Assembly: GCA_020630915.1 (NCBI GenBank)
Contig: JAHDIF010000015.1
Location: 131 to 37,714, forward strand
DNA from: Dokdonia sp.
GTDB taxonomy: Bacteria; Bacteroidota; Bacteroidia; Flavobacteriales; Flavobacteriaceae
Length of the DNA: 37,584 nt
Reading direction: 5' to 3'
The notes beneath the pieces were generated by a model. The model worked only from the letters and a program-made list of their open reading frames with translations, was not told where the DNA came from and made no database searches. Numbering within the stretch: position 1 is the first letter of the stretch; every line of letters begins with the position of its first letter. Shown here piece by piece: positions 5,278 through 36,452 of the stretch. The position numbers and the translations under genes are program-made.

Positions 5278-5348
5278 GAATACGCTTTAACGCTTCGCTC
5301 TCCCAGAGGTCGTGAATCTCACAAGTTCGATTTCGCGAAAGCGTATTC
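5278..5348. repeat. repeat element A with terminal inverted repeat, downstream of glpKD
   Basis: GAATACGCTTT (5278-5288) and AAAGCGTATTC (5338-5348) are 11-bp inverted repeats. Inside, 5298-5345 matches 19321-19368 at 40 of 48 positions without gaps (CTCTC, GTGAATCT, AGTTCG, TTTCGCGAAAGCGTA). The palindrome at its right end is degenerate on the left arm (GATTTCGCGAAAGC). It abuts the TAG stop of the glycerol gene (5349-5351), so it may also act as a terminator. Confidence 0.75.
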
Positions 5349-8300
5349 CTACATAAATTCTTCTTCATAATAGTGACTGGCATCTTGAAGGAGAATGTCT
5401 AAATAGTCATTTTCTTTTTGTAATCTCGCTTCGTCCCAGCCTAGGTATCTGACCATATCTTCTTGTACCAAATTTCTGTACTGATGAACGGAGTGTATGT
5501 CAAAATAAAGACGTCCAGTTCTTCTTACAAAAAAGTCGGTGAGACTATTGGTCATCTCGTGATGGACGCTATACCATATTTCTGCACGAACCAAACGCTC
5601 TTCTGGATTTCCATTTAAAAAGTAACTCATCTTATCAACAATAGTATCACTTTGCTTGCCATAGGTAGTTGCTAGATACCAGCTTTGATACTCATTTAAA
5701 ATTCCAGATGCTTTAAGACGTTTTGCAATTTCTTGTTGGTAAGCATCTACCTCCTTGGTGTTTTGTAAAGGCTCTGAGGTGAGGGGTATTTTTTCCGTAT
5801 AGGATTTTACAAGGTGTTCTTTTTTCTTATAGGGGACATTTTTAATAACTCTATCAATAACGCGTTGCGCCATCTTGCGATAACCCGTTAATTTTCCACC
5901 AGCTATAGAAATAAGACCTGTTTTAGATTCAAATATTTCATCTTTTCGACTCAGTTCTGATGGATCCTTTCCATCTTCGTGTATCAATGGACGCAGCCCT
6001 GCCCAGTTAGACTCTATATCATCTATCGTGAGATTGAGATTTGAGAACATATTATTTGTGGCCTCTAGCAAGTAATTTGCATCGTCCATTGTGGCCACTA
6101 CACGATTAAGATTGCCACTATAGTTGGTGTCTGTAGTGCCTACATAGGTAGACCGTCCTCTTGGAATGGCAAAAATCATACGTCCGTCTGGCACGTCAAA
6201 ATAAATGGATTGTGTGAGCGGGAAGCGTTCTCTTGAAAACACAATGTGCACACCTTTGGTAAGGTGTAAGTACTTGTTGTTTATAGACTTATCTTTCTTT
6301 CGAAGTAAATCTACCCAAGGCCCCGCAGCCGAAACATAATGCTGTGATTTAAGTTTGAAAGACTTTTGAGTGTTGTGATCAAAACATTGCAGGCTTTTAA
6401 TCTTGCCGTTATCATCATATTTAAAAGATTTCATCTCACAATAATTTATGATGGTCGCATCAAAAGTTGCTGCCTTTTTAAGCAGTTCTATAGTGAGCCG
6501 TGCGTCGTCTGTGCGGTACTCTGCATAGTATCCACCGCCTACAAGATTTTCTTTATTGAGAAGGGGTTCACGCGATGCGGTTTCTTCTACACTTAGCATT
6601 TTGCGTTTATCATCGCCTTCTACATTTGCAAGAAAATCGTAGACTTTTAATCCAATGGCCGTCATCATCTTACCATAGGTACCCCCTTCAATAAGAGGGA
6701 GTAACATTTTCTCTGGAACCACTAGGTGAGGAGCGAGGGTGTGTACAATTGCACGTTCACTCCCAGACTCTTTCACGAGTCCAACTTCCATTTGCTTGAG
6801 ATATCGCAAACCTCCGTGTATAAGTTTAGTAGATTTGTTGCTTGTTCCAGAGGCAAAGTCGTTCTTTTCTATTAGACATACATTCATTCCTCTCGAAGAG
6901 GCGTCTAATGCGATACCAGCTCCTGTGACACCGCCTCCTATTATGATGAGGTCAAATTTATCTCTTTGCGCACGAGTAATCTGCCTCTCTCTGTCCAATA
7001 CAGAAAAACGCATGGGAGTATCATCTTGAGTGGCAAGCATTTGGTTTGTAGTGCTCTTTGTGCGTGCTACTGCATTTTTCCACCCCTTGTACTTTTTATT
7101 TCTTTCGTATTCGGTAATGGCTGGTTCAAAAACGGTGCCTACCTGGCGTATGTTTGCAATATCTTTTTTATTCCAAATACCTGATTGTATCCCTGCGAGG
7201 AATGCAGCGCCCAGTGCGGTCACCTCAAGCATTTTAGGGCGATCTACTTCTACATTTAAAATGTCAGATTGAAACTGCATTAAGTAATTATTGGCTGTAG
7301 CGCCTCCATCTACTTTAAGTGTTTTCATTTGTTTACCAGAATCTTCAATCATAGCATCTAGAACGTCTCTTGTTTGGTAAGCTAGTGCATCTACTGTAGC
7401 TTTTATGATATCGTTTTTACCCGAATCTAGCGTAAGTCCGTATATCGCACCTTTTGCGTCCATATCCCAATAGGGAGCCCCTAATCCTGCAAAGGCAGGG
7501 ACAACATAGAGATCATCACTAGAAGATGTGGTTGTACATATTTCTTCTGTTTCTTTAGCACTGTCTATTACTTGAAGTTTATCCCTCAACCATTGTACGG
7601 AGGCTCCTCCTACAAAAATAGATCCTTCTAGGGCATACTTCACTTTTCCATCTGGTAAACTGGCACATAAAGTGGTTAGTAATCCATTTTTAGAATGAAA
7701 AGGCTTTTTCCCTGTATTCATTAATAAAAAGCAACCTGTGCCGTAGGTGTTTTTGGCCATTCCAGATTTATAGCCTCCTTGTCCAAAAAGTGATGCTTGT
7801 TGATCACCTGCTACACCGCAGATAGGTATTGTATGTCCATCTAATTCAATTTCCCCAAAATCTGATGCAGAGTTCTGCACCTTGGGTAGCATTGATTGTG
7901 GAATGTTAAGCGCTTCGAGCATCTTTTCGTCCCATTTAAGAGCTATAATATTATAGAGGAGTGTTCTGCTGGCGTTAGAGTGGTCTGTAGCGTGTACTTT
8001 TCCATTAGTAAACTTCCAGATTAGCCAGGTATCTATGGTGCCAAAGAGCAGGTTGCCTTGTTGCGCTTTCGCGAAAGCGCCCGCTACATTATCCAATATC
8101 CACTTTACTTTGGTTCCTGAAAAATAGGAGTCTATAATAAGACCCGTATTCTTTTGAACGTAGTCTCCTAGGTCTTGGGATTTGAGTTGCTCACAAATAT
8201 TTTTGGTACGTTTATCTAGCCAAACGATAGCGTTGTAAACAGGTTCTCCTGTATTTTTATCCCAAACTACGGTAGTCTCTCGTTGGTTGGTAATCCCAAT

Positions 8301-8528
8301 TCCTGCTATCTCTTCTATAGAAATATTGGATGTTTTAATAACTTCTTTAAAAGTGGCTTGCTGCGCTTTGAATATTTCAATAGGATCGTGTTCTACCCAG
8401 CCATGATTGGGGTAGTACTGAGTAAGTTCCTTTTGAGCAATATTTCTTATAGAACCTTGATTATCAAAAATGATAGCTCTTGTACTGGTAGTACCTTGAT
8501 CAAATGCAATAATATATTTTTTGGTCAT
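5349..8528 (-). CDS. glycerol kinase / glycerol-3-phosphate dehydrogenase fusion
   Basis: One 1059-aa frame carries two complete enzymes. Residues 1-~490 are Glp[13 protein letters not shown] (8-19), [10 protein letters not shown] (81-90), TYGTGCF (261-267) and DGGATANN. Residues ~506-1059 are FAD-dependent GlpD: GGGVTGAG (531-538), [20 protein letters not shown], and a C-terminal GlpD domain. A 16-residue polar linker joins them. Met506 (bases 7011-7013) looks like an ordinary GlpD start (MRFSVLDRE), so the fusion probably arose by loss of the glpK stop. Product: glycerol to glycerol-3-phosphate to DHAP, the second step feeding electrons to quinone at the membrane. No glpF uptake gene is present. 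Residues 151-155 are AFAKA from a perfect palindrome, replacing same-length sequence in other GlpKs. Confidence 0.92.
8065..8078. repeat. palindrome GCTTTCGCGAAAGC inside the glycerol kinase domain
   Basis: Perfect copy; the palindrome extends to 18 bp (8063-8080). Encodes Ala-Phe-Ala-Lys-Ala at residues 151-155. By memory of E. coli GlpK (VEGSRERARRGELLFGT) the alignment needs no gap. Confidence 0.95.
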
Positions 8529-8570
8529 AACAATTTTACCTTCTAAAGGGTCTTCTTTAAAAATACAAAA

Positions 8571-8590
8571 ACATACGCATTAAGGTATGT
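8571..8590. promoter_or_regulatory. short inverted repeat upstream of glpKD
   Basis: ACATAC (8571-8576) and GTATGT (8585-8590), an 8-base spacer, 42 bases upstream of the glpKD ATG. It could be an operator for glycerol control; arms are short and no regulator gene is nearby. Confidence 0.25.
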
Positions 8591-8612
8591 AAATCAGAAC
8601 TTAAAGAGCTAG

Positions 8613-9896
8613 CTAGTCTGTAAAGATTTCTAAAATGCGTTCCATTTTCATGCCTCTAGACCCTTTGATAAGGATGGTGCATTTATTGGGAAGGTTGGAA
8701 GGATACGCTTTTGCGAAAGCATCATAACTCTCAAAAACATTTTGTTCGTCATTTTCTGGTGTAGATTTCCCAAATGATGGGCCCATGGCAAATACTTGTT
8801 TGATTCCAAGGGTATGCGCAAGATGGAGTATTTGTTGGTGCTCTTCTATTGCTCTTTTGCCTACTTCGAACATATCCCCTATAAAGGCTACCGTATGTTC
8901 TTTTTTTTGAAGGTGGAGGTTCTGAATTGCGGCGGCCATACTGGTAGGGTTGGCATTATAGGCATCTAGAATAATTTTATGTCTGCCCTTTGTTACTAGT
9001 TGAGAGCGGTTATTATCAGGAATATAGGACTCTAACCCTTTTTTTATTTGGTCTGGACCTACCTCAAAATGAGAACCCACTGCGGCTGCTACAGCAATGT
9101 TCGTAAAGTTATAAGCGCCAATAAGTTGAGTGGTAATGTGCTCGTTTTGATGCTTTATGCTAACGGTGGGATTTGCCTTTTCTAAAACAGTTGGATAATC
9201 ACTGTCTAAAGAGCCAAAGGTTTTAATGGTCTCTATACCTTTTGATTGTGTTACTTGTAAAGGGTCTTGGTCGTAAATAAAAGCTGTACCTTTCCTTTTT
9301 TTAAGATAGGTGTAGAGTTCACTCTTACCTTTAATAACTCCTTCAATGCCTCCAAAACCTTCTAAATGTGCTTTCCCAAAGTTGGTTATTAGGCCATAAT
9401 TGGGTTGGGCAATCTCGCATAGCGCTTCTATTTCTTTCTGATGATTTGCCCCCATTTCTACAATACCTATTTCTGTTTCGGCATTTAGAGACAATAATGT
9501 GAGTGGTACTCCTATGTGATTGTTATAATTTCCTTGTGTAGCGTATGTTTTGAATTTTTGTGATAGGACGGCATTGATAAGTTCTTTTGTGGTGGTTTTA
9601 CCATTGCTTCCTGTAAGACCAATGATAGGAATGTTTAGATAATTCCTATGGTAGGTGGCGAGCTCTTGCAGAGATTTTAATACATCTTTTACAAGTATTG
9701 TATCTTCATTTTTATACGTTTCTTCATCAATGACAGCTTTTAGGGCTCCTTGTTTTAAAGCTTGATGAGCAAATCTGTTACCATTAAAATTATCTCCTTT
9801 AAGAGCAAAATATAATTGCCCCGATTGTAAAGATCTAGTGTCGGTACAAACTCCTGTACTTTTTAAAAATAGGGAATGAAGTTCTGGTAGGCTCAT
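8613..9896 (-). CDS. murF: UDP-N-acetylmuramoyl-tripeptide--D-alanyl-D-alanine ligase
   Basis: A 427-aa Mur ligase that adds D-Ala-D-Ala to the UDP-MurNAc-tripeptide, the last cytoplasmic step of peptidoglycan precursor synthesis. The N-terminal UDP-binding domain contains DTRSLQSGQLYFALKG (~19-34). The ATP loop is LTGSNGKTTTKEL (~94-106), followed by EMGANHQKEIEALCEIAQPNYGLITNFG, and the C-terminal domain has LDAYNANPTSM and IGDMFEVG. Length is usual. It follows gldJ on the same strand, 58 bases away across a terminator, so it may have its own promoter. Residues 393-397 are AFAKA from a one-mismatch palindrome. Confidence 0.95.
   Translation of the reverse strand: MSLPELHSLFLKSTGVCTDTRSLQSGQLYFALKGDNFNGNRFAHQALKQGALKAVIDEETYKNEDTILVKDVLKSLQELATYHRNYLNIPIIGLTGSNGKTTTKELINAVLSQKFKTYATQGNYNNHIGVPLTLLSLNAETEIGIVEMGANHQKEIEALCEIAQPNYGLITNFGKAHLEGFGGIEGVIKGKSELYTYLKKRKGTAFIYDQDPLQVTQSKGIETIKTFGSLDSDYPTVLEKANPTVSIKHQNEHITTQLIGAYNFTNIAVAAAVGSHFEVGPDQIKKGLESYIPDNNRSQLVTKGRHKIILDAYNANPTSMAAAIQNLHLQKKEHTVAFIGDMFEVGKRAIEEHQQILHLAHTLGIKQVFAMGPSFGKSTPENDEQNVFESYDAFAKAYPSNLPNKCTILIKGSRGMKMERILEIFTD
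8706..8720. repeat. one-mismatch palindrome inside murF
   Basis: CGCTTTTGCGAAAGC differs from the perfect 14-mer by one base and still encodes AFAKA in the gene's frame (residues 393-397). Confidence 0.8.
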
Positions 9897-9910
9897 ATTT
9901 TGGGTATTAA

Positions 9911-11836: not shown

Positions 11837-14800
11837 ATGATGAGAAGACTTATACCTTTAATCGCGTTGCTCACGTTTGCGAATATTTGGTCCCAGCAAA
11901 AGCCCTTAATACTTGATTGGGACCAGCTGGTAACCTTGCAGAGTGGGGAGCTCTTGTTAAATGAGAAGTATTTGACCAAGGATCAAGAGGATCAAGCAAT
12001 TACTTACATGGAGCAATGGGAGGTTGCAGGTTCTTTTCAATTTCAAAATGTACAGATTGCTTCTGTGTCTTATGAATCTATCCCAGCAGAGGTATTGTCT
12101 AAACTCGAAAAAAGTACAATACCGTCTTCGTTAAAATTTAGACTAAATTCTAGTAAAGCCCGTAATACAAATTATGCGGTCTTAGAAATGAATCCTTTTG
12201 TAAAGGATAATGGGCAATATAAAAGAGTAAAAGAGATTCGTTTTGAGTATGCTTTCGCGAAAGCGCAAACCCAGCAAAGCGCCTTGCCTATCTCAAATTC
12301 TTTACTTGCCACAGGCAGCTACTATAAGTTTTATGTAGAAAAAACGGGAGTACATCGTATAACACGCAATTTTATGCAAGATTTAGGGATGTCTCTTAAC
12401 GGTATTGATCCCTCTAAAATTAAGGTGTATGGATACGGAGGCTCGCCTCTGCCTTTACTGAATAGCGATAACACTCTTTTTGACCTTAGAGAAATCCCTA
12501 TTAAGGTAGTGGGAGGAGAAGATGGTTCTTTTAATGGAAATGATCACGTGCTATTTTATGGTGAAAGCACGAGGAAATTGCACGAGGAGTTAGATACTCA
12601 CGTAAATCCCTATGCAGACAGGTCTTACTATTATATAACTACGGGAGGAACTAATGGGTTGCGTGTAGCACCTATGGTAGAGCCAGGAGGAACCCCAACC
12701 ACTACATTTACAACTTTTGATGACTATCAGTTTTATGAAGAAGATATCAATAGTCTGGTAAAGGTTGGTAGAAGATGGTTTGGTGAAGAGTTTTCTTTTG
12801 AGAATGAACAGTCGTTCGATTTTACATTTCCTAATCCAGCTGTAGGTCAAATGGCAACATTAAAGGTTGTAGCTGCTGCAGTTTCTGAGTCTGTAACCTC
12901 CTTTGATGTCGCTGTAAATGGGGGTAATGTAGGTTCAATAAGTATTGGTGCCATAGGAGCAACCGTACTGGCCAGAGACAACGAGTTGGTTGTAGAAATT
13001 CCTGCGCCATCTCCAGAGACTACGATTACCCTAACCTATAATAATAGCGGAAACCCTGCAAGTTCAGGATATCTAGATTACATAAGCTTAGAAGTGCCAA
13101 GAGGGTTACAAGGCACAGGAGAGCAAGTGGCTTTTAAAAATAATCAAAGTGCTGTTTTGGATGGAGTAGGATCTTATGTTTTTACGAACGCCAGTGAGTA
13201 CTCAGAAATTTGGGATGTTACGGATCAAGCAGCAATTTCTTCATTTATCAATGAAGGAGGCCAGAGTAGTATGAGTTTTAAAGCTTCGTTAGGGACGTTG
13301 AGGTCTTATGTTGCGATCACTTCTAGTGATTACTTTACTCCTCAAAGAGAAGGAGGTAGTGCACTTGTAGCAAATCAAAATATTAAGGGTACGATTTTTA
13401 ATAATGCCAGCGGGCAATTTGAAGATGTAGATTATTTAATGATTAGTGGTCAAGCATTGCTTCCTCAAGCACAAAAACTTGCACAGCATAATAGAGATGT
13501 GCGTGGCCTTAACGTTAAGGTAGTGACGCTAGATGCTATTTATGAAGAATTTGGCGGAGGTAAACAAGATATTGGGGCTATTAGAAATTTAGTGAAATAT
13601 GTGTATGATAATGCTTCTAATGATTCAGAGCGATTAAAATACTTGTGTCTTTTTGGAGATACTTCTGTAGACTATAAAGATAGGTTGATAGGTAATAATA
13701 ATATCGTTCCCACCTTTCACGCGTTTAGTAGCTTTAGTCTTGTTAATTCATTTATGTCTGATGATTTTTATGGATGTCTAGACCCAAGTGAAGGAAGATT
13801 GATAGGATCTGATAAGTTAGATATTGCTGTAGGAAGAATTCTAGCAGACACGCCAGAACTTGCAAATACGGTAGTAGATAAAATTATAGCGTATGACGCT
13901 AGAGACTCTTATGGTAGATGGCGCAATAATTTTGTGCTCATATCCGATGATGCAGACGAGCCAGGAGCAGCTCATTTTGAGCTACAAGTAAATCTGGATG
14001 CTTTAGGTGATGAGATAGAGAATCAAAAACCATTTATAAATGTAACAAAAATACATGCAGATTCTTTTCAGCAAGAATCTTCGGCTGGTGGTGATCGTTA
14101 TCCGCAAGTAAATGACGCTATTTCAAATGCCATAGAAGTAGGAGCGCTTGTGGTTACGTACTTAGGTCACGGAGGTGAAGAGTTATTATCCTCAGAGGCC
14201 ATAGTAACTCAAAATACCATTAATGATTTGATAAATGAGGAAAGACTTCCCTTGTTGGTTACGGTTACTTGTGAGTTTACAAAATTTGATAATCCTTTAA
14301 GACCTACTGGTGGAGAAGGTTTTATATGGAGTCAAGAAGGAGGTGTTGTTGGTGCGGTAGCAACAACAAGAGAAATAACGGTGACCTTGGGAGTGAATTT
14401 TAATGATGCACTCGCTGCGCAGTTATTTTCCTTTGGGACAAATGATATTGTGAGTGTTGCAGAAAATGTGAGAGTCTCAAAAAATGCCATTTCAGATTCT
14501 AGAAGGAGAGTGATTTTTTTTCTGGGAGATCCGGCAATGACACTCGCATTCCCCTCACCAGATATTAGACTGACGGCAATTAATGATGTTCCTGTAACTT
14601 CAGAACTTCCTAATTTACGAGCCTTAGATAGAATTAAAGTAAATGGAGTAGTGACAAGTGAACTTGGTCAAGTTATTTCTAATTATACAGGAACTCTTGC
14701 GGTAACTCTTTATGATAAGGATATTCAAAGGCAAACTTTGGGGAATGATGGAACTACAGATCCGAATACGGGAGAATTGCTATTGTTGGACTTTAAAACG

Positions 14801-15661
14801 CTAGGGGCTGTTTTGTACAGAGGGCAAGCATCAGTTACAAATGGACAATTTGAGTTTGAGTTTGTAATGCCTAGGGACACAGCGATCCCTTTAGGAAATG
14901 GTAGGCTTAATTTTTATTCAGAAAGATTTGGTGTCTTAGAAGATCAGACGGGCGTTAATAAAGACATAATTATTGGGGGGCTTAATGAAAATGCACCTCC
15001 AGATAATCTAGGGCCTACAATACAACTTTTTATGAACGACGAGAACTTTGTGAATGGAGGTATAACAAATGATTCTCCCATCATCTTAGCAAAGTTAGAA
15101 GATGAAAATGGGATCAATACAGCAAGTGGTATAGGTCATGATATTGTTGCCATAATAGACGGAGATGAGACAAACCCTCTTATAATGAATGACTTTTACG
15201 AGAGTGATATAGATGATTTTATGCGAGGAACAGTCACTAGAAAAATTAGAAATTTAGAGGAAGGACCTCATACACTTACGTTTAAGGCATGGGATGTGTA
15301 CAATAATTCTTCTACTGCAGAGCTGCAATTTGTAGTAGTAGGAGATGGAGATCTTAAACTAGAAAATGTTCTCAATTATCCTAATCCTTTTGTGAATTAT
15401 ACGGAGTTTTGGTTTAACCATAATCGTGCTCTTGAGCCCTTAGATGTTCAAATTCAAATTTTTACGGTGAGCGGAAAGGTTGTAAAAACGATCAATCAAA
15501 CAGTACTAAATGAAGGGTTTTTATCGCGCGATATTACGTGGGATGGGTTGGATGATTTTGGTCAAGCGATAGGAAAAGGAGTCTATGTATATAAGATAAC
15601 TGTCAAATCTACGTTAACCAACAAGCGAGTAGAGAAGTATGAAAAGCTCGTGATACTATAA
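11837..15661 (+). CDS. porU: type IX secretion C-terminal signal peptidase PorU
   Basis: A 1274-aa gingipain-like (peptidase C25) surface protease that removes the C-terminal sorting domain of T9SS cargo and transfers the cargo to its anchor. Signal peptide ~1-19. The N-terminal half holds beta domains, followed by the C25 catalytic domain with LFGDTSVDY, the catalytic His in YLGHGGEE (H778) and Cys in TVTCEF (C812). The end carries a FlgD-like/T9SS-type C-terminal domain (NYPNPFVN... to KGVYVYKITV). Next to porV downstream and divergent from gldJ, the known conserved arrangement. Residues 139-143 are AFAKA from a perfect palindrome in the N-terminal region. ATG 11837 and ATG 11840 are both possible starts. 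Confidence 0.95.
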   Translation: MMRRLIPLIALLTFANIWSQQKPLILDWDQLVTLQSGELLLNEKYLTKDQEDQAITYMEQWEVAGSFQFQNVQIASVSYESIPAEVLSKLEKSTIPSSLKFRLNSSKARNTNYAVLEMNPFVKDNGQYKRVKEIRFEYAFAKAQTQQSALPISNSLLATGSYYKFYVEKTGVHRITRNFMQDLGMSLNGIDPSKIKVYGYGGSPLPLLNSDNTLFDLREIPIKVVGGEDGSFNGNDHVLFYGESTRKLHEELDTHVNPYADRSYYYITTGGTNGLRVAPMVEPGGTPTTTFTTFDDYQFYEEDINSLVKVGRRWFGEEFSFENEQSFDFTFPNPAVGQMATLKVVAAAVSESVTSFDVAVNGGNVGSISIGAIGATVLARDNELVVEIPAPSPETTITLTYNNSGNPASSGYLDYISLEVPRGLQGTGEQVAFKNNQSAVLDGVGSYVFTNASEYSEIWDVTDQAAISSFINEGGQSSMSFKASLGTLRSYVAITSSDYFTPQREGGSALVANQNIKGTIFNNASGQFEDVDYLMISGQALLPQAQKLAQHNRDVRGLNVKVVTLDAIYEEFGGGKQDIGAIRNLVKYVYDNASNDSERLKYLCLFGDTSVDYKDRLIGNNNIVPTFHAFSSFSLVNSFMSDDFYGCLDPSEGRLIGSDKLDIAVGRILADTPELANTVVDKIIAYDARDSYGRWRNNFVLISDDADEPGAAHFELQVNLDALGDEIENQKPFINVTKIHADSFQQESSAGGDRYPQVNDAISNAIEVGALVVTYLGHGGEELLSSEAIVTQNTINDLINEERLPLLVTVTCEFTKFDNPLRPTGGEGFIWSQEGGVVGAVATTREITVTLGVNFNDALAAQLFSFGTNDIVSVAENVRVSKNAISDSRRRVIFFLGDPAMTLAFPSPDIRLTAINDVPVTSELPNLRALDRIKVNGVVTSELGQVISNYTGTLAVTLYDKDIQRQTLGNDGTTDPNTGELLLLDFKTLGAVLYRGQASVTNGQFEFEFVMPRDTAIPLGNGRLNFYSERFGVLEDQTGVNKDIIIGGLNENAPPDNLGPTIQLFMNDENFVNGGITNDSPIILAKLEDENGINTASGIGHDIVAIIDGDETNPLIMNDFYESDIDDFMRGTVTRKIRNLEEGPHTLTFKAWDVYNNSSTAELQFVVVGDGDLKLENVLNYPNPFVNYTEFWFNHNRALEPLDVQIQIFTVSGKVVKTINQTVLNEGFLSRDITWDGLDDFGQAIGKGVYVYKITVKSTLTNKRVEKYEKLVIL
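12251..12264. repeat. palindrome GCTTTCGCGAAAGC inside porU
   Basis: Perfect copy, encoding AFAKA at PorU residues 139-143. Confidence 0.95.
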
Positions 15662-15681: not shown

Positions 15682-15689
15682 TATATTTG
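15682..15689 (+). promoter_or_regulatory. porV promoter -7 motif TATATTTG
   Basis: Exact TAnnTTTG match in the 46-base gap between porU and porV, 18 bases before the porV ATG at 15708. No clear -33 TTTG is visible. It suggests porV can be expressed separately from porU. Confidence 0.5.
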
Positions 15690-15707
15690 TTTAAATCAAT
15701 ATTTTTT

Positions 15708-16884: not shown

Positions 16885-16898
16885 GCTTTCGCGAAAGC
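16885..16898. repeat. palindrome GCTTTCGCGAAAGC between porV and cdd
   Basis: Perfect intergenic copy, 7 bases upstream of the cdd ATG. It does not carry the GTGAATCT flank seen in the long elements. Confidence 0.95.
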
Positions 16899-16905: not shown

Positions 16906-17388
16906 ATGAAAAAAATAAAGATAGAATCGTTTCTGGAAGTGTATCCTAGTATAAAGGAGCTCCCAGAAACGATTTTTTCTTTAATGCAATCTGCCATTGC
17001 GGCAAGAGATAAAGCATATGCACCCTATTCTGACTTTACGGTGGGAGCAGCCTTACTTTTAGATAACGGAGAGGTGATTGCTGGAAGTAACCAAGAAAAC
17101 GCTTCATATCCCTCAGGCCTTTGCGCAGAGCGTACTGCGATATATTATGCAGGAGCCACTTTTCCAGGTGTCTCGATACGTTCTATAGCCATAAGTGCAA
17201 AATCACGAATAAAGCCTACGCTTACGCCTATTCCTCCTTGTGGTGCTTGTAGGCAAGCCATTGCCGAATATGAAATAAAGCAGGGGACTCCAATAGCGCT
17301 TTATTTTATGGGTGAGGAGGGAGAAGTAGTAAAAAGTGATTCTCTTGAGAATTTATTACCACTACTTTTTACTTCAAAATATTTGTAA
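16906..17388 (+). CDS. cdd: cytidine deaminase
   Basis: A 160-aa homotetrameric-type cytidine deaminase converting (deoxy)cytidine to (deoxy)uridine for pyrimidine salvage in the cytoplasm. Zn ligands are C73 in the CAE motif, with catalytic E75, and C112/C115 in PPCGACRQ. YAPYSDFTVGAAL (38-50) and NQENASYPSGLCAERTA (62-77) are canonical. Third in the porU-porV-cdd row; the 52-base gap contains a palindromic repeat. Functional link to secretion is not implied. Confidence 0.95.
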   Translation: MKKIKIESFLEVYPSIKELPETIFSLMQSAIAARDKAYAPYSDFTVGAALLLDNGEVIAGSNQENASYPSGLCAERTAIYYAGATFPGVSIRSIAISAKSRIKPTLTPIPPCGACRQAIAEYEIKQGTPIALYFMGEEGEVVKSDSLENLLPLLFTSKYL

Positions 17389-19286: not shown

Positions 19287-19320
19287 AGGGATGTATGGAG
19301 AGGACACTTTTATAGCTTTA

Positions 19321-19368
19321 CTCTCTTAAAAGTTGTGAATCTAACGAGTTCGCTTTCGCGAAAGCGTA
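19321..19368. repeat. repeat element B ending in a perfect palindrome
   Basis: In the recF/TPR divergent intergenic region. Matches 5298-5345 at 40/48 positions and 34381-34428 across its core, always at the same offsets (GTGAATCT at +14, TTTCG at +33). Contains the perfect palindrome at 19352-19365. Confidence 0.85.
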
Positions 19369-21151: not shown

Positions 21152-23029
21152 ATGGCAGACATCATTAAGCTTTTACCGGATCACGTTGCAAATCAGATTG
21201 CAGCGGGAGAAGTCGTACAACGACCTGCTTCTGTAGTGAAGGAATTATTAGAAAATTCTATAGATGCTGGGGCGAGTACTATCAAGCTCATTGTTAAAGA
21301 TGCGGGTAAAACGCTTATCCAAATTATAGATGACGGTAAAGGAATGACGGATACAGACGCTCGGATGAGTTTTGAGCGTCACGCAACCTCAAAAATTACA
21401 AACGCAGATGATCTTTTTAATTTAACTACAAAAGGATTTAGAGGGGAGGCACTAGCGTCTATTGCCGCCGTTGCTCACGTAGAGTTAAAAACAAGACCTG
21501 AGGGACAAGACTTAGGGTCTCAAATAACTGTTGAAGGTAGCAAAGTAATACAGCAAGAACCTTGCGCTACACCTAAAGGAACTTCTCTGGCGGTGAAGAA
21601 TTTGTTTTTTAATATCCCAGCGCGCAGAAATTTCTTAAAGTCTAATAACGTAGAGATGCGTCATATAATAGACGAGTTTCAACGAGTTGCCCTCGCGCAC
21701 CCTGACATCGCAATGCAAATGTATCATAATGATGGTGAATTATTCCATCTCTCTTCTGGCAAACTAAAGCAACGCATCGTGGGTATCTTTGGAGGAAAGA
21801 CTAATGAGAAGTTAGTACCCGTAAAAGAGGAGACCGATATCGTAAAAATAAGTGGGTATGTAGTAAAACCAGAATTTGCCAAGAAAACCAGAGGAGAGCA
21901 ATTTTTCTTTGTAAACAATAGATTTATAAAAAGTGCATATCTCAATCACGCAGTCTCAGCAGCCTTTGATGGGTTGTTGCCAGATAGAGCAAGATCGAGT
22001 TATTTTCTGTATTTAGAGGTAGATCCTGGCAGTATAGATATTAATATCCACCCAACAAAAACCGAAATTAAATTTGATGATGAGCACTCTCTGTATGCAA
22101 TGCTTAGAAGTACGGTAAAGCATAGTTTAGGGCAGTTTAACATCGCGCCAGTATTAGATTTTGATAGAGATAGATCACTAGACACACCCTACAACTACAA
22201 AGATAAATTTGCGGCTGCACCACAAATTAAGGTAGATAGAACTTTTAATCCTTTTGAAAATGTTGCTCCTCCTAAAAAAGGAGTGCAAATGCCGCATTTT
22301 GAAAAACCACAAACTGAAGGTTGGGAACAACTGTATGAGGGACTTCAAAAGGAAAATATACAAGCAGAAGGGAGTAAACTTACTTATGAGAGTGAGCAGG
22401 TAACTGGGGATCTTTTTAAAAGTGGAGATACTGCTCCTGCCGGCCGAGCAGGCGGGTTTGCGAAAGCGGAAGCCACTACCTACCAGCTTCAAAATAAATA
22501 TGTTGTGACGACTATAAAGAGCGGCATGGTGATCATCCACCAGCACAGGGCGCATCAGCGGGTGTTGTATGAAGAGCTTTTAAAGAATATTACACTGGCT
22601 TCTTCTGTGAGTCAGCAATTACTTTTTCCGTTAGTGTTGTCGTATAGTCCTAGTGAATTAGGATTGTTATTGCAGTTAAAAGAGGGATTGGAAAACACAG
22701 GATTTCTATTTGGATCTATTAAGGATGAAACCTTAGAAGTTACAGGAATCCCAACGGCACTTACGGAGGCCGAAGTACCTATTATATTAGAACAATTGTT
22801 AAGTGATCTAGAAAACGAAGTGCCAGATGTTGGGTTTAGTCAGACCGATGCCTTGGCAAAAAGTATGGCAAAAAGTATAGCGGTAAAAACTGGAGAAAGA
22901 CTGGATGAAACATCTAGAGAACATCTTGTAAATAGTCTTTTTGCCTGTAAAGAGCCTTCTTTTTCTCCCTCTAATAGAACTACTTTTATTACCATTACAA
23001 GTGACGAACTAGAAAGAAAATTTCAATAA
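21152..23029 (+). CDS. mutL: DNA mismatch repair protein MutL
   Basis: A 625-aa GHKL-ATPase mismatch repair protein. Start set at ATG 21152 (MADIIKLLPDHVANQIAAGEVV) rather than a TTG 30 bases upstream. ATPase motifs: ELLENSIDAGA (31-41), DDGKGM (60-65), TKGFRGEALASIA (93-105). A flexible linker (~330-440) leads to the dimerisation domain. The canonical endonuclease motif DQHAxxE is altered: the aligned segment is HQHRAHQ (463-469), and no CPHGRP motif is seen at the C-terminus, which ends FACKEPSFSPSNRT. It may lack nicking activity. The linker contains GGFAKAE from a degenerate palindrome with a GC-rich flank (22436-22469). Confidence 0.95.
   Translation: MADIIKLLPDHVANQIAAGEVVQRPASVVKELLENSIDAGASTIKLIVKDAGKTLIQIIDDGKGMTDTDARMSFERHATSKITNADDLFNLTTKGFRGEALASIAAVAHVELKTRPEGQDLGSQITVEGSKVIQQEPCATPKGTSLAVKNLFFNIPARRNFLKSNNVEMRHIIDEFQRVALAHPDIAMQMYHNDGELFHLSSGKLKQRIVGIFGGKTNEKLVPVKEETDIVKISGYVVKPEFAKKTRGEQFFFVNNRFIKSAYLNHAVSAAFDGLLPDRARSSYFLYLEVDPGSIDINIHPTKTEIKFDDEHSLYAMLRSTVKHSLGQFNIAPVLDFDRDRSLDTPYNYKDKFAAAPQIKVDRTFNPFENVAPPKKGVQMPHFEKPQTEGWEQLYEGLQKENIQAEGSKLTYESEQVTGDLFKSGDTAPAGRAGGFAKAEATTYQLQNKYVVTTIKSGMVIIHQHRAHQRVLYEELLKNITLASSVSQQLLFPLVLSYSPSELGLLLQLKEGLENTGFLFGSIKDETLEVTGIPTALTEAEVPIILEQLLSDLENEVPDVGFSQTDALAKSMAKSIAVKTGERLDETSREHLVNSLFACKEPSFSPSNRTTFITITSDELERKFQ
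22455..22468. repeat. degenerate palindrome with GC-rich flank in the mutL linker
   Basis: GGGTTTGCGAAAGC keeps the right arm of the palindrome and encodes FAKA in frame. It is preceded by CCTGCCGGCCGAGCAGG (22436-22452); a similar GCC-GGCAGGCAGG segment lies next to the degenerate element in mutB (34433-34443). Confidence 0.6.
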
Positions 23030-24674: not shown

Positions 24675-24678
24675 GACA

Positions 24679-28003: not shown

Positions 28004-28717
28004 TTAAGATAAGTTTAGCACATCACGCATCGAAAATACGCCTTTTTTCCCAAGAAGCCACTCGGCGGCTATGACTGCTCCAAGGGCAAAGCCCTCTCTA
28101 GAATGTGCTTCATGTGAGATAGAAATGGTATCTATATTACTTTTGTATGTTACGATATGTGTTCCAGGCACCATTCCTTCTCTTTTGGAAGTAATAGGAG
28201 CGACATTGGTTTCAACTTCTGGGGGATCACTTTCGGTAAGTTGCCACGTATTGTAATGTGAATTGTCAATAATGTCTTGGGCAACGGTAATGGCTGTACC
28301 ACTGGGTGCATCCAGTTTTTGAGTGTGATGAATTTCTTCAATACCTAATGAATAGGCATCTTGTTTGTTCATCAAGCTTGCTAGTTTCTTATTTAGCTCA
28401 AAAAACAAATTAACGCCTACGCTAAAGTTGGATGCGTAGATAAAAGCGCCATTTTTTTCCTTGCACAGAGCAACTACGTCGTCATATGCATCGAGCCATC
28501 CTGTTGTTCCAGATACAATAGGAATGTTATTTTGTAAACAAGAAGTGATATTTGCTACAGCAGATTCTGGAAGACTAAAATCAATAGCGACATCTACTCC
28601 TTCTGGACTAAAATTAGTATCTCTTCCTACTTTTTGAGAGATCGTATGCCCTCTATCTAAGGCAATTTTCTCAATAGTTTTACCCATTTTTCCATATCCC
28701 AAAAGTGCAATTCTCAT
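28004..28717 (-). CDS. dapB: 4-hydroxy-tetrahydrodipicolinate reductase
   Basis: A 237-aa NAD(P)H-dependent reductase in the diaminopimelate/lysine pathway. GYGKMGKTIE (7-16) is the nucleotide site, SGTTGW (69-74) contacts the cofactor, and EEIHHTQKLDAPSGTA (127-142) holds the catalytic His130/His131 and Lys134. C-terminal AHSREGFALGAVIAAEWL matches the family. Its ATG shares a base with the stop of the upstream DUF5683 gene (TAATG). Confidence 0.95.
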   Translation of the reverse strand: MRIALLGYGKMGKTIEKIALDRGHTISQKVGRDTNFSPEGVDVAIDFSLPESAVANITSCLQNNIPIVSGTTGWLDAYDDVVALCKEKNGAFIYASNFSVGVNLFFELNKKLASLMNKQDAYSLGIEEIHHTQKLDAPSGTAITVAQDIIDNSHYNTWQLTESDPPEVETNVAPITSKREGMVPGTHIVTYKSNIDTISISHEAHSREGFALGAVIAAEWLLGKKGVFSMRDVLNLS

Positions 28718-29322
28718 TAATCTATTTTGTAGGTTATTTTAAAGCCGTAGTGCATAGCGACCCCTAGATCATCAGTATGAATATCTGGTGCAAAGGTAAG
28801 ATCGTCATCTACATCATATTGTGTTAGATGTGCATCTACATTTGCTTCTATTATTTGTAATACATACATCCCAGCGGTCACCAAAATGGCGAGTTCTTTT
28901 CGTCTTCTAAAGACATCTTGACCTCTTATCAAGGCGTCATTAGAAAATATTTCAGTGATCTCACCAGTTTCAGGATCTTCCGTAGTAAATTCATCTACTC
29001 TCCCGGCAAGACGGTCTTTAAAGGCATTTCTAAACCTTTTAAATTCTTTGTCACTGTCAATAGCAACAAATACTCCCGACCCCAAAGCGCCGTAAACAAG
29101 CGGTAATTTCCAGTAGTCTTTATTGTATACTTGTCCTAAACCTGGCAAGGCGGCTGCATAAAATGCTGCTCTAGCCGGTCTTAAAGGATCATAGGCTTCT
29201 TTCGAGATAATAGAGTCTCCTGCAACAATGGTATTTTCTATATCATTTGTGGGGGTCTGCGCTTTCGCGAAAGCACAAACAAAAACAAACAATATAAAAA
29301 CGATTTGTTTGTTACTTAGCAC
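28717..29322 (-). CDS. DUF5683 domain protein
   Basis: A 201-aa exported protein: signal peptide 1-~21, then a conserved PLRPARAAFYAAALPGLGQVYNKDYWKLPLVYGALG segment, two hydrophobic stretches, an FRRRKELAILVTAGMYVLQIIEANVDAHL region and an FAPDIHTD... end. The family is Bacteroidota-specific and of unknown function, typically in this par-dap-lep setting. Start overlaps the parB end by 11 bases. The palindrome at 29261-29274 encodes residues 17-21 (AFAKA), immediately before Gln22, so it supplies the AKA signal-peptidase site. Confidence 0.83.
   Translation of the reverse strand: MLSNKQIVFILFVFVCAFAKAQTPTNDIENTIVAGDSIISKEAYDPLRPARAAFYAAALPGLGQVYNKDYWKLPLVYGALGSGVFVAIDSDKEFKRFRNAFKDRLAGRVDEFTTEDPETGEITEIFSNDALIRGQDVFRRRKELAILVTAGMYVLQIIEANVDAHLTQYDVDDDLTFAPDIHTDDLGVAMHYGFKITYKID
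29261..29274. repeat. palindrome GCTTTCGCGAAAGC inside a signal peptide
   Basis: Perfect copy, encoding AFAKA at residues 17-21 of the DUF5683 protein, where AKA-Q forms the predicted cleavage box. Confidence 0.95.
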
Positions 29323-32291: not shown

Positions 32292-34484
32292 TTACTCAGT
32301 CATTATTTCAAGCAACCCAATGGCAGCGTCACTTATCTTAGTTCCAGGGCCAAAAACAGCAGCAGCCCCTGCGTCAAAAAGAAATTGATAGTCTTGTTGA
32401 GGGATTACTCCTCCTACGATTACCATAATATCTTCTCTACCCAGTGTTTTTAATTCTGCAATCACTTGTGGTACTAATGTTTTATGTCCCGCTGCAAGCG
32501 AAGATACACCTAAGATGTGTACATCATTTTCCACTGCTTGCTTAGCGGCTTCTTTAGGTGTTTGAAAAAGAGGTCCAATATCTACATCAAAACCTATATC
32601 TGCATACCCCGTAGCCACTACTTTGGCTCCGCGATCGTGACCATCCTGTCCCATTTTTGCAATCATAATGCGAGGGCGTCTGCCATCTTGCTCAGCAAAT
32701 TGGTTTGCAAGTTGTTGCGCTTTCGCGAAAGCGGGATCCTTCTTTATCTCTTTACTATACACACCACTAAATGTTTTAATCGCAGCTTTATGTCTACCGT
32801 ATACCTCTTCTAGTGCGTCTGAAATTTCACCTAAAGTTGCTCGCTCTCTGGCTGCAATAATAGCTAAAGCTAGTAAATTTTCTTTACCTGTCTTTGCTGC
32901 CTTTGTTAACGCTTCTAGTGCTTTAGTTACTTTTACAGTATCTCTAGTAGCTTTTATCTGTGCCAAACTCTCTAGCTGGCCTTCTCTTACTTTAGTATTA
33001 TCAACTTCTAAGATGTCCAAGTGCTCATCTTCTGTAGGCTGGAACTTGTTTACACCTACAATAATGTCTTGACCGCTGTCTATACGTGCCTGCTTTCGGG
33101 CAGCTGCTTCTTCTATTCGTAGTTTGGGGATGCCGGCTTCTATAGCCTTGGTCATTCCGCCTAGCTCTTCTACTTCTTTAATTAAATCCCAAGCTTTGTG
33201 TGCGATATCATTAGTGAGCGATTCTACATAATAACTTCCTGCCCAAGGGTCTACAGTGCGCGTGATATGGGTCTCTTTTTGTAAGTATATCTGTGTGTTA
33301 CGGGCTATGCGTGCCGAAAAATCTGTAGGTAAGGCAATGGCTTCATCTAATGCATTTGTGTGTAAGCTCTGCGTGCCTCCAAATGCAGCTGCAGTTGCTT
33401 CAATACACGTTCTGGCAACGTTGTTAAAGGGGTCTTGCTCTGTAAGACTCCATCCACTTGTTTGGCAATGAGTTCTAAGAGCTAGAGATTTTGGATTTTT
33501 AGGATCAAATTGTTTTACAATTTTTGCCCATAGCATTCTCGCGGCTCGCATTTTTGCGATTTCCATAAAATGGTTCATTCCTATAGCCCAGAAAAATGAG
33601 AGTCTTGGGGCAAATGCGTCTATATCCATTCCAGCAGCTAGACCTGTGCGTATATATTCTAGTCCATCTGCAAGTGTATAGGCTAGTTCTATATCACAAG
33701 TTGCTCCAGCTTCTTGCATGTGATATCCAGAGATAGAAATGCTATTAAATTTGGGCATCTCCTTAGAGGTATACTCAAAAATATCAGATATGATACGCAT
33801 AGAAGGAGTAGGAGGATAGATATATGTGTTGCGCACCATAAACTCTTTGAGAATATCATTCTGTATAGTACCAGATAATTTTTCTGGTGCTACTCCTTGT
33901 TCTTCTGCGGCGACAATATAGAAGGCCATTATAGGTAGCACGGCTCCGTTCATAGTCATAGAAACACTCATTTGATCTAAGGGTATTTGATCAAATAAAA
34001 GCTTCATATCTTCTACGGTGTCTATGGCAACACCAGCTTTTCCTACATCGCCAACAACGCGGTCGTGATCACTGTCATAACCTCTATGTGTGGCTAGATC
34101 AAAGGCTACTGAGAGTCCTTTTTGTCCAGCTTCAAGATTACGCCTATAAAAAGCGTTGCTCTCTTGCGCAGTAGAAAATCCAGCATACTGACGGATCGTC
34201 CAAGGACGTCGCACGTACATAGTACTGTAAGGCCCTCTCAGATTAGGCGCAAGTCCAGCTACAAAATCAAGGTGCTCTAAAGGGTCAATATCTGCAGGCG
34301 CATATTCTTTTTTAAGTGCAATATTTTCGGCTGTAACAAACGTGTCTTGATTGAGAGTAGCTTCTTGCTTCGCTGCTGTGCTCTTCCTTTGGTTGTGAAT
34401 CTCACGAGTGCTGTTTCGAGAACTTACCTCGCCGGCAGGCAGGAGCGCGTCTAGGGTAATATGTTCGAGATTTTTTCTACTCAT
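32292..34484 (-). CDS. mutB: methylmalonyl-CoA mutase large (alpha) subunit
   Basis: A 730-aa catalytic subunit interconverting methylmalonyl-CoA and succinyl-CoA with adenosylcobalamin. TIM barrel from [36 protein letters not shown] through [14 protein letters not shown]-terminal B12 domain with [11 protein letters not shown], whose H616 is the axial cobalt ligand. The N-terminus carries an extra polar stretch (~15-33, around [14 protein letters not shown]) encoded by a copy of the dispersed 48-bp element (34381-34428). Residues 585-589 are AFAKA from a perfect palindrome in the interdomain linker. Overlaps the upstream lipoprotein gene by 8 bases. Confidence 0.96.
32719..32732. repeat. palindrome GCTTTCGCGAAAGC inside mutB
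   Basis: Perfect copy (16 bp with flanking C/G), encoding AFAKA at residues 585-589, between the barrel and the B12 domain. Confidence 0.95.
34381..34428. repeat. repeat element C inside the mutB coding region
   Basis: Gap-free relative of 5298-5345 and 19321-19368: CTCT at the start, TTGTGAATCTCACGAGT core, GTTTCGAGAAC where the others have the palindrome. The palindrome is decayed. It codes for part of a polar N-terminal extension of MutB. Confidence 0.75.
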
Positions 34485-35055: not shown

Positions 35056-35078
35056 AGTGTTACTAATGGTGTTTGAAA

Positions 35079-36452
35079 TTAAACTTCTGATTTTAATCGT
35101 TCTTGTTCCATAACCTCTGCTAGTCGTCTAGCAATTATGGGTTCTATAATAGTTTTTCTTGGTTTGTGTTTTACAAAAGGGTAGAGCTCTAACTCATTTT
35201 TCATGAGATCTTTTTTGTTAGGATGTATGTTTGTTCCCAATAAAAGGGTATCTCCTGTGTTAAATGCACTCTGCTCTTTTTGAGCGCTTTCTTTTATTTT
35301 ACGCTGTATGGTTCCTTCTTTGAGCTGTTTTAAGAATCCGCCTGAGTTTTCAATTTCTTTAAATAATTTTAGCGCTTTTGTTGAGAGTTCTTTGGTCAAC
35401 TCTTCTATATAGTAGGCTCCGTCTGATGGATTACTCACAATGTCAAAATAACTTTCTTTTTTTAGGATGATTAATTGATTTCTGGAGATGCGTTGTCCAA
35501 AATCATTGCGCTTATGATAGAGGTCATCATAAGGTCTATTAATGATAGTATTTGCTCCACCTAAAATAGCACTCATACACTCCGTAGTGGTACGCAACAT
35601 ATTTGTGTTGTAGTCGTAAATAGTTTTATTACGTCTGGTAGGTCTGGCCATGATGTGACACTGTGCGTTTTTTGCTAAAGCATATTCTTGAGTAACTAAT
35701 TCAAATAGTTGTCTAAGCGCCCTTAATTTTGCAATTTCAAAAAAGTAGTTAGACCCTACATCTACCTTAAAATTTGTGGACTCTAAGGGTGTCTCTTTAT
35801 TTTCGGCATAATTGAGATACTCATTTACATGGCATAAGCCATAAGCCAGTTGTTGCACTATTGTGGCACCTGCATTTTGATAATGTGAAGTGTCTACAGA
35901 TAGTACATTTCCTCCTTTAGCTAGTATCATTTCTAATTGCTTATGATCTTGATCTAATGACGCATACCAGTTTCCGTCTTTGACAAGGTTGCCTATGATA
36001 TCTGTATTGAGAAAAATAGTAAATTTCTTTGCAGTGGCTTTTTCTTGTAACGCTTTCGCGAAAGCGATATCTAAAAAATTTAACTGAAAATGTAAAGGGG
36101 TGTCATTATTTGTGAGTTCGCTAAAAAGCGGGTCGATTTCAAAAGGATTATCTGCTATAAAATGGATAGCTTCTGTACCGTTTTCAATAGCGAGTGCTGC
36201 TGTTTTTCCTGCGGCTGAAGGCTCAAGAATAAAAACATCCTCACCTATAAACCACTGCTCAGGTATTTGAGTGATGACTGCAAGAGATGAAACATCATCT
36301 CTATGGTAAAATGGTTTTACGTGGATACCTTCAGGACTTTGCCATATCAAAGTGTCATTGTAGTCTTCCCCTTTGAGATCTACCTGTATCTTTTGCTTAT
36401 AGGCTTTAGAAGATACCGTGTCAAAATCTTGAAAAAGCTTGTTTTTAGTCAT
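35079..36452 (-). CDS. mutA: methylmalonyl-CoA mutase small (beta) subunit
   Basis: A 457-aa non-catalytic partner of MutB. Barrel features remain: LIWQSPEGIHVKPFYHRDD, VGSNYFFEIAKLRALRQLF, MARPTRRNKTIYDYNTNMLRTTTECMSAILGGANTI and SDGAYYIEELTKEL. It ends near residue 457 with no C-terminal B12-like domain and no DxHxxG, so it is shorter than the ~600-residue actinobacterial form; this seems usual in flavobacteria. Residues 130-134 are AFAKA from a perfect palindrome. Start overlaps the divIC end by 8 bases. Confidence 0.93.
   Translation of the reverse strand: MTKNKLFQDFDTVSSKAYKQKIQVDLKGEDYNDTLIWQSPEGIHVKPFYHRDDVSSLAVITQIPEQWFIGEDVFILEPSAAGKTAALAIENGTEAIHFIADNPFEIDPLFSELTNNDTPLHFQLNFLDIAFAKALQEKATAKKFTIFLNTDIIGNLVKDGNWYASLDQDHKQLEMILAKGGNVLSVDTSHYQNAGATIVQQLAYGLCHVNEYLNYAENKETPLESTNFKVDVGSNYFFEIAKLRALRQLFELVTQEYALAKNAQCHIMARPTRRNKTIYDYNTNMLRTTTECMSAILGGANTIINRPYDDLYHKRNDFGQRISRNQLIILKKESYFDIVSNPSDGAYYIEELTKELSTKALKLFKEIENSGGFLKQLKEGTIQRKIKESAQKEQSAFNTGDTLLLGTNIHPNKKDLMKNELELYPFVKHKPRKTIIEPIIARRLAEVMEQERLKSEV
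36052..36065. repeat. palindrome GCTTTCGCGAAAGC inside mutA
   Basis: Perfect copy (16 bp with flanking C/G), encoding AFAKA at residues 130-134 (LDIAFAKALQEKA). Confidence 0.95.

What the first reader, a model, noticed from the sequence alone, without database searches (positions are those of the whole stretch)
5331..36066. A 14-bp palindrome, GCTTTCGCGAAAGC, iterated across the window
Perfect copies sit at 8065, 12251, 16885, 19352, 25528, 29261, 32719 and 36052; degenerate ones at 5329, 8707 and 22455. Any given 14-mer is expected far less than once in 37 kb, so eight perfect copies spread over both genes and gaps is a strong signal. The pattern recalls the cyanobacterial HIP1 highly iterated palindrome, REP sequences, or binding sites of a nucleoid or segregation protein. 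I know of no description of this motif.
Basis: partly seen in the sequence, partly recalled or inferred. Interest (0 to 1): 0.85.

Follow-up and report, generated by a model that had tools for sequence, protein, structure and literature searches.

The report
Evenly spaced palindrome in marine flavobacteria
Marine bacteria of the genus Dokdonia, and a second, distantly related genus, carry the same 14-letter DNA palindrome hundreds of times, spread unusually evenly along the chromosome, most likely as a self-recognition tag for taking up and recombining DNA; I found no description of it in the papers I could search.

Summary
The window lies in a Dokdonia genome (Flavobacteriaceae) with 685 perfect copies of GCTTTCGCGAAAGC. 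The 17 other same-genus genomes sampled, the 23 sampled of a distant genus g26 (Nonlabens by recall only) and one g206 genome carry 288 to 905. The other sampled Bacteroidota genomes have 0 to 19.

New: (1) the element is about 50 bp: palindromic core plus two independent 18-nt arms, G-poor and A/C-rich outward, A favoured every 3 nt, alike in both lineages. (2) Spacing is even: 16 of 303 gaps under 1 kb against 97 expected; E. coli Chi and 150 control 7-mers are random. (3) Sites stay perfect in diverged DNA, yet positions turn over. (4) Perfect copies outnumber one-mismatch copies 12:1 in G017, about 5:1 elsewhere. (5) REP/RAYT, terminator and C5-methyltransferase readings fail.

Best explanation, unproven: a DNA uptake/recombination signal of the pilus-less flavobacterial transformation system. 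No recognising protein was found. A chromosome-organising protein is the main rival.

The parts
8065..8078 (.). perfect copy inside an ORF that by sight joins glycerol kinase and glycerol-3-phosphate dehydrogenase (5349-8528, - strand), reads AFAKA
12251..12264 (.). perfect copy inside the 1274-aa ORF at 11837-15661 (PorU-like by sight), reads AFAKA; an orthologous copy is shared with G017
16885..16898 (.). perfect copy in the gap between the ORFs 15687-16853 and 16906-17388; arm score only 0.1
19352..19365 (.). perfect copy in the gap between the ORF 18204-19307 (RecF-like by sight, -) and the ORF 19470-20255 (+); also perfect in Dokdonia locus L005
25528..25541 (.). perfect copy inside the ORF 24613-25704 (nuclease-like by sight), reads AFAKA; perfect in L005 and L009, not in L006 and L007
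29261..29274 (.). perfect copy in the signal-peptide region of the ORF at 28717-29322 (-), reads AFAKAQ; perfect in L005, L006, L007, L008, not in L009; present at the aligned place in g206
32719..32732 (.). perfect copy in the methylmalonyl-CoA mutase large-subunit-like ORF (32292-34484, -), reads AFAKA; perfect in 7 of 7 Dokdonia and 5 of 5 g26 genomes examined
36052..36065 (.). perfect copy in the mutase small-subunit-like ORF (35079-36452, -), reads AFAKA; not perfect in the aligned Dokdonia locus L005 nor in G017
5329..5342 (.). one-mismatch copy in a gap between ORFs, arm score 3.6
8707..8720 (.). one-mismatch copy in the ORF 8613-9896 (MurF-like by sight, -); still reads AFAKA
22454..22467 (.). 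3-mismatch possible relic in the MutL-like ORF; perfect at this place in L006, L007, L009

Best explanation
The 14-bp palindrome with its two 18-nt G-poor arms is a self-recognition signal for DNA exchange: a DNA uptake (or uptake-coupled recombination) sequence of the pilus-less natural-transformation system of Flavobacteriaceae. DNA carrying the signal is preferentially bound and imported, then recombined. Copies are therefore gained and kept by biased gene conversion (molecular drive) and by purifying selection, in places where they do least harm. One copy per imported fragment is enough, which gives even spacing of about 3.7 kb (899 copies in 3.29 Mb of G017) and repulsion under about 1 kb. 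Shown here: sequence, arms, spacing, conservation, turnover, placement, taxonomic range, presence of ComEC and of the DUF5689/outer-membrane pair. Inferred: that these genera are competent, that the signal acts in uptake, and the receptor, which was not found.
For: Even spacing in two genera, beyond what placement in genes and gaps gives, not seen for E. coli Chi or for 150 equally common 7-mers. Published uptake sequences are likewise evenly spread, conserved, in permissive core-genome places, and scarce in newly acquired DNA (PMC7811141 and PMC2397512, passages). Few copies in an O-antigen-type cluster (3 per 20 kb), a type I restriction locus (2) and an array with TPR, LRR and Schlafen-domain genes (1), mean 5.3; these were picked because they were low. 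Perfect:one-mismatch 373:31 in G017. Density and spacing are conserved while individual positions turn over: 5 shared, 4 and 6 private between two Dokdonia species. In tandem gaps copies sit just after stop codons, away from the next start. All three frames used. ComEC family in 20 of 20 genomes tested; DUF5689 in all 9 motif-rich genomes tested. The Riemerella DUF5689 gene and its outer-membrane partner are essential for transformation there, and Riemerella prefers own DNA (PMC8459023, PMC7965970, passages).
Against: No motif-specific receptor: the DUF5689 protein does not group motif-rich genera in a tree, its operon is like that of the one motif-less genome compared, and its two C-terminal types occur in both kinds of genome. 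Partial sequences of the upstream outer-membrane partner show no grouping either. I know of no demonstration of competence in Dokdonia or g26. Known uptake sequences are not palindromic (recall). No recombination tract around the site shared by Dokdonia and g26. Genuine-looking sites also occur in phage-like contigs. ComEC and DUF5689 are as common in genomes without the motif.
Confidence: 0.48

Rival explanations
1. The element is the binding site of a dedicated chromosome-organising protein (nucleoid, loop-anchoring or segregation factor) that needs an anchor every few kilobases.
For: Perfect dyad core plus symmetric arms fit a dimeric double-strand DNA binder; regular spacing, few degenerate copies, and presence in coding and non-coding DNA alike. 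A weak decline with distance from the GC-skew switch near 0.7 Mb (Spearman -0.24, p 0.049; 5.7, 5.6 and 4.8 copies per 20 kb by thirds) would fit it, though the harmonic test is not significant (p 0.14).
Against: Positions turn over between species; no strong regional bias along the chromosome; copies are few in several islands. No candidate protein found; the search was partial. The core resembles parS and Noc sites but is out of register with them (recalled sequences).
Confidence: 0.27
2. A recombination hotspot signal of the Chi type, palindromic so that it acts from both sides, with the G/T-rich 18 nt on its 5' side serving as a recombinase (RecA) nucleation cassette.
For: On either strand the 18 nt on the 5' side are C-poor and G/T-rich with a 3-nt phase, matching the 3 nt per monomer and about 18 nt per turn of RecA filaments (recalled).
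Against: Chi in 150 kb of E. coli is spaced at random (29 gaps, CV 0.99) whereas this element is not; Chi octamers are short and asymmetric (recall).
Confidence: 0.12
3. A methylation-linked highly iterated palindrome like HIP1, kept by an orphan methyltransferase and repair.
For: Palindromic, iterated, clade-specific, in genes and gaps, like HIP1 (PMC4390886, start of abstract and one passage).
Against: C5-methyltransferase family PF00145 not found in 8 of 15 motif-rich genomes; TCGCGA outside the sites close to Markov expectation; 14 bp plus 36 bp of arms exceeds usual methyltransferase specificity (inference). N6/N4 methyltransferases not tested.
Confidence: 0.06
4. A mobile palindromic repeat (REP/MITE) or a transcription terminator.
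For: Palindrome, genome-wide, enriched about 9-fold per base between genes in G017 (computed from the counts).
Against: 191 of 373 G017 sites lie in called genes, in all three frames; Y1 transposase family not found in 10 of 15 motif-rich genomes; the arms do not extend the palindrome, are alike on both sides relative to transcription in tandem gaps, and are A/C-rich downstream instead of a run of T.
Confidence: 0.02

Closest known systems
Uptake signal sequence (USS) of Haemophilus and DNA uptake sequence (DUS) of Neisseria
   Same: Hundreds to thousands of copies, conserved core (USS also with weaker flanks), even spread, in permissive core-genome places, in coding and non-coding DNA, scarce in acquired DNA, clade-wide (passages of PMC7811141 and PMC2397512)
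   Different: Here the core is a perfect palindrome with two symmetric G-poor triplet-phased arms; copies are 3- to 4-fold sparser than the roughly 1-kb USS spacing; relatives transform without pili; no uptake test exists; shared by two distant genera
HIP1 (GCGATCGC) of cyanobacteria
   Same: Iterated palindrome in genes and gaps
   Different: 14 bp not 8 bp, long arms, even spacing here (HIP1 spacing not examined), and not tied to the one methyltransferase family tested
Chi (GCTGGTGG) of E. coli
   Same: Similar density (32 in 150 kb)
   Different: Chi is asymmetric and, in that sample, randomly spaced
parS and Noc/SlmA/MatP-type sites
   Same: Palindromic binding sites of chromosome proteins (recall)
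   Different: Those are tens of copies with regional bias (recall); here hundreds of copies with at most a weak regional trend

Membership tests
DNA uptake sequence (USS/DUS) | far above chance, genome-wide, clade-specific | tested here: met
DNA uptake sequence (USS/DUS) | even distribution, few close pairs | tested here: met
   in the g26 contig G708:C4 the close-pair deficit holds (5 against 18.4) but the overall gap CV 0.915 is not significant
DNA uptake sequence (USS/DUS) | scarce in acquired segments | tested here: inconclusive
   Spearman of count with GC 0.30, p 0.013, n 67; GC below 0.37 mean 4.0 (n 9) against 5.6 (n 58); the islands named were picked because they were low, and acquired origin is inferred from gene content
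DNA uptake sequence (USS/DUS) | promotes uptake of DNA by competent cells | not testable with these tools
   needs a transformation assay
DNA uptake sequence (USS/DUS) | cognate receptor specific to motif genomes | tested here: inconclusive
   DUF5689 found in 25 of 26 genomes, with and without the motif, no motif-specific form established; other candidates not tested
HIP1-type methyltransferase-linked palindrome | shared cognate methyltransferase | tested here: inconclusive
   speaks against PF00145 as the shared factor (not found in 8 of 15); other families not tested
REP/RAYT | genome encodes a Y1 transposase | tested here: not met
   not found in 10 of 15 motif-rich genomes
REP/RAYT | copies confined to gaps between genes | tested here: not met
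   191 of 373 in called genes
Intrinsic terminator | hairpin followed by a run of T, oriented with transcription | tested here: not met
Chi | modulates RecBCD/AddAB recombination | not testable with these tools
MatP/Noc/SlmA-type site | strong regional bias along the chromosome | tested here: not met
   67 N-free stretches of G017:C1, 1 to 8 copies per 20 kb; harmonic test p 0.14, weak decline with distance from the skew switch (Spearman -0.24, p 0.049)

The most novel reading that the evidence does not exclude
A new class of chromosome-wide DNA signal: a palindromic core that works from either side, flanked by two 18-nt arms built as six triplets almost without G, read by a RecA-like or other triplet-stepping protein once one strand is exposed. 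It would mark the chromosome every few kilobases as an entry point for strand exchange with own-kind DNA, and two distant genera would share the same code and so form one gene-exchange community.
Probability: 0.15. Interest if true: 0.92.

Novelty: new variant of a known kind. Interest (0 to 1): 0.8.

Why it matters
If it is an uptake signal, it would be the first in Bacteroidota and the first palindromic one that I know of. It would show that sequence-guided DNA exchange exists outside the pilus-bearing Proteobacteria, and it would give the still unknown flavobacterial DNA importer a defined ligand to test. If instead it anchors a chromosome protein, it would reveal a regular, ruler-like organisation every few kilobases that no nucleoid system I know of shows. 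Either way the sharing of one 50-bp code by two distant genera, and its absence from the sampled genera that look closer to Dokdonia by ParB, is an evolutionary puzzle.

Tried and rejected
Considered and rejected: REP/RAYT, MITE, terminator, C5-methyltransferase HIP, restriction avoidance. Considered: an ori- or ter-biased segregation site; at most a weak decline with distance from the GC-skew switch. Considered: copies in other genera as independent iteration. Several of the clusters examined in low-count genomes (in G110, G119, G246, G133, G368, G044) lie in a shared copper/heavy-metal efflux region (P-type ATPases, AcrB-type pump, outer-membrane efflux protein, multicopper oxidase, CusB-like protein) that also occurs in Dokdonia and g26. 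Single copies in G059 and G382 and some other stretches were not explained. Homologues 67 to 94% identical carry the sites at the same positions. The idea that sites decay in motif-less hosts was not supported: 17 of 21 perfect in motif-less hosts (the query's own two included) against 16 of 20 in motif-rich ones (second overlapping G425 piece L406 left out). Recent transfer may explain this.

Tried for the recognising protein without success: trees of DUF5689 and of partial outer-membrane partner sequences, and column comparison. One DUF5689 column (0.89) exceeded the random-label maximum (0.86 in 60 draws), but labels are not independent of clade and both C-terminal types occur in both groups, so I do not claim it. 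Looking for unusually similar protein pairs between Dokdonia and g26 gave, by sight, housekeeping genes, on part of the genomes only.

Another iterated palindrome in the 75 ParB loci of other genera: only three TTGTTAACAA in each of two loci; loci are at most 21 kb, so a rarer one would be missed. The first spacing control (six 9-mers) used parts of the motif itself and is void; one search replaces it. No recombination tract around the shared mutase site (25 of the 29 rows; G003, G042, G246 and G018 left out).
Full report
WHAT IS THERE. The window holds eight perfect copies of GCTTTCGCGAAAGC and two with one mismatch, where chance gives about 0.1 within two mismatches. The place given as 22455 has three mismatches in its best register and background-like arms. 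The window's own genome (G000, 2.97 Mb, 18 contigs) has 685 perfect copies and none of the reversed control. ParB of the window matches Dokdonia best (five loci, 87 to 93%; next Gelidibacter 82%), so the genus is taken as Dokdonia.

TAXONOMIC RANGE. Same genus: the 17 other genomes sampled have 369 to 905 copies; the 21 further genomes of that sample have 0. Family sample of 397 genomes, own included: six carry 400 or more, namely the own genome and one other of the same genus, three of genus g26 and one of g206; 74 carry 1 to 19 and 317 none. Genus g26: 23 of 23 carry 288 to 857. Phylum sample of 296: apart from the own genome the maximum is 4. By ParB, g206 is 85% identical to the window but g26 only 70 to 72%, below several genera without the motif such as G022 (82%) and G176 (81%). 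The ParB tree puts g26 with six motif-less genomes (99/97), on a long branch; the mutase tree does not join g26 with Dokdonia but is largely unresolved. G012 and G176 match contig lengths of Dokdonia sinensis and Leeuwenhoekiella polynyae.

THE ELEMENT IS ABOUT 50 BP. In G017 (70 stretches of 20 kb, 373 sites) positions +1 to +4 outward favour G, T, A, A/C; from +3 to +18 G is at 1 to 12%, mirrored on the other side. In intergenic sites the bias fades to background between +19 and +27. The two arms vary independently; at +5, +6 and +10 they are if anything less palindromic than expected. So this is a symmetric half-site preference, not a longer hairpin. A is favoured at +4, +7, +10, +13, +16 in intergenic arms of G017 (column-shuffle p 0.014), the own genome (p 0.0002), and g26 genomes G273 (p 0.006) and G425 (p 0.083, 18 arms). 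The phase was noticed first on G017 and own arms, so only the g26 tests are independent of that look. In tandem gaps the arms look alike on the 5' and 3' side relative to transcription. A weight matrix of arms trained on G017 scores g26 sites at a median of 11.5, own-genome sites at 6.1, and random places at -13.2 (99th percentile 2.9).

COPY QUALITY. Perfect against one-mismatch: G017 373:31, own 54:10, g206 28:5, g26 58:12. Outside sites in G017, TCGCGA is seen 137 times against 111 expected, CGCG 1279 against 1658.

PLACEMENT. In G017, 191 of 373 are in called genes, 181 between genes, 1 across an end, with 90% of sequence called coding (home-made gene caller, so approximate). Frames are AFAKA 119, (x)FRES 25, (x)LSRK 47. 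In 108 tandem gaps the median distance is 21 nt after the stop and about 100 nt before the next start. Signal peptides are a recurrent place: 27 of 167 frame-0 sites, pooled over five genome samples, start at residues 12 to 26.

SPACING. In G017, 303 within-stretch gaps have CV 0.61; random placement preserving the numbers in genes and gaps gives 1.01 +/- 0.04. There are 16 gaps under 1 kb (expected 97 +/- 7), and the variance/mean per 20 kb is 0.51 (expected 1.29, minimum of 300 simulations 0.71). A contiguous run of 99 gaps gives 4 under 1 kb against 22.7 (CV 0.74). G708:C4 of g26 gives 5 of 93 against 18.4, although its overall CV (0.915) is not significant because of site-free stretches up to 30 kb. 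The smaller samples give 0 of 43 (own), 0 of 24 and 0 of 18 (g26) and 1 of 20 (g206) under 1 kb. Controls: 150 7-mers of like abundance in the same DNA have CV 0.88 or more and at least 25% of gaps under 1 kb, against 5.3% for the motif; E. coli Chi, 29 gaps, CV 0.99, 6 under 1 kb against 6.0 expected. Along the G017 chromosome a first-harmonic trend is not significant (p 0.14), but the count falls weakly with distance from the GC-skew switch (Spearman -0.24, p 0.049). Some stretches with few copies hold an O-antigen-type cluster, a type I restriction locus, a TPR/LRR/Schlafen array, or a frame of at least 4957 aa; count rises with GC content (Spearman 0.30, p 0.013).

EVOLUTION. Where window copies can be aligned to other Dokdonia (DNA 69 to 81% identical), 9 of 13 aligned places are perfect and 4 are not, and four aligned copies in the others are not perfect in the window (window sites 8065, 12251 and 16885 had no alignment there). 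The mutase large-subunit site is perfect in 7 of 7 Dokdonia and 5 of 5 g26 genomes, absent from g206 and from 16 of 16 motif-less genomes (2 to 10 mismatches). Dokdonia-g26 identity is 1.00 in the 14 bp, 0.77 in the 30 nt on one side (0.61 against motif-less genera), but 0.73 in the 30 nt on the other (0.74 between Dokdonia and motif-less genera) and ordinary elsewhere. This is conservation or convergence at a point, not a transferred tract. Across orthologues, own-G017 shares 5 with 4 and 6 private (59 pairs); Dokdonia-g26 shares 2 with 10 and 5 private (47 pairs); Dokdonia-g206 shares 2 with 5 and 4 private (29 pairs). Neutral survival of 14 bases at about 72% identity would be near 1% (inference). 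So density and spacing are maintained while positions turn over, which fits a signal that acts regionally better than gene-by-gene regulation (inference).

COPIES ELSEWHERE. Several clusters in low-count genomes lie in a shared copper/heavy-metal efflux region, also present in Dokdonia and g26.

MECHANISM. Even spacing, strict conservation, permissive placement and clade restriction are what uptake sequences show (PMC7811141, PMC2397512; passages read). Riemerella transforms without recognisable pili, with own-DNA preference and no established signal; the essential set includes ComEC, DprA, ComF and an outer-membrane protein next to a DUF5689 protein (PMC8459023, PMC7965970; passages). ComEC is in 20 of 20 genomes tested, DUF5689 in 25 of 26. 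The two-gene operon, with a nuclease-like gene nearby, is present in four motif-rich genomes (G017, G222, G273, G425) and one motif-less genome (G119); in G222 the nuclease-like gene lies on the other side. The nuclease family (Exo_endo_phos_3) was checked in G017 and G273 only. No form of DUF5689 or its partner was shown to track the motif, so the receptor remains unknown and the uptake reading stays at about even odds. A chromosome-organising protein is the main rival. The 18-nt triplet arms invite a RecA-loading reading, kept as the novel case.

LITERATURE. The 14-mer: 0 papers. 'Highly iterated palindrome' or 'Flavobacteri': none of the 15 listed holds the first phrase. 'Dokdonia' with 'palindrom': 5 listed, none on this by listing. 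'DNA uptake sequence' with Bacteroidetes: 5 listed, none on this by listing. Terms on Dokdonia, Nonlabens and transformation: 74 papers hold three of five terms, 15 listed, none on this by listing. HIP1 survey PMC4390886: no occurrence of Bacteroidetes or Flavobacter. Only openly licensed papers were searched.

Noticed in passing
window 5349-8528 (-): A single 1059-aa ORF that by sight joins glycerol kinase and glycerol-3-phosphate dehydrogenase; I recall these as separate proteins.
   Followed up: no
L107:14162-19561; L458:1141-6681: A secreted-looking Exo_endo_phos_3 nuclease gene stands beside the CarboxypepD_reg outer-membrane gene and the DUF5689 gene in Dokdonia and g26 alike; a possible part of the flavobacterial DNA importer.
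   Followed up: partly
DUF5689 proteins (alignment): DUF5689 proteins have two alternative C-terminal domain types scattered over genera, and G108 and G019 show two DUF5689 matches in one frame, suggesting exchange of domains.
   Followed up: partly
L125-L136: A copper/heavy-metal efflux region shared between Dokdonia, g26 and several motif-less genera, carrying the palindrome at fixed places (two copies 933 bp apart in L125, L127, L128, L130).
   Followed up: partly
G011, G016, G044, G133, G176, G246: A second, ParB-like match in a frame of about 600 aa in several genomes; in G246 and G044 one lies within about 55 kb of the efflux region.
   Followed up: no
L097:5125-19998: One open frame of at least 4957 aa in G017, in a stretch with a single copy of the palindrome.
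   Followed up: no
L294: A mostly same-strand array of small genes with long gaps in G017, including TPR, LRR and Schlafen AlbA_2 proteins and only one palindrome in 20 kb; looks like an acquired array.
   Followed up: partly
L064: Olleya namhaensis locus with a repeated AACACCGTGTAT unit (4 copies in 21 kb).
   Followed up: no
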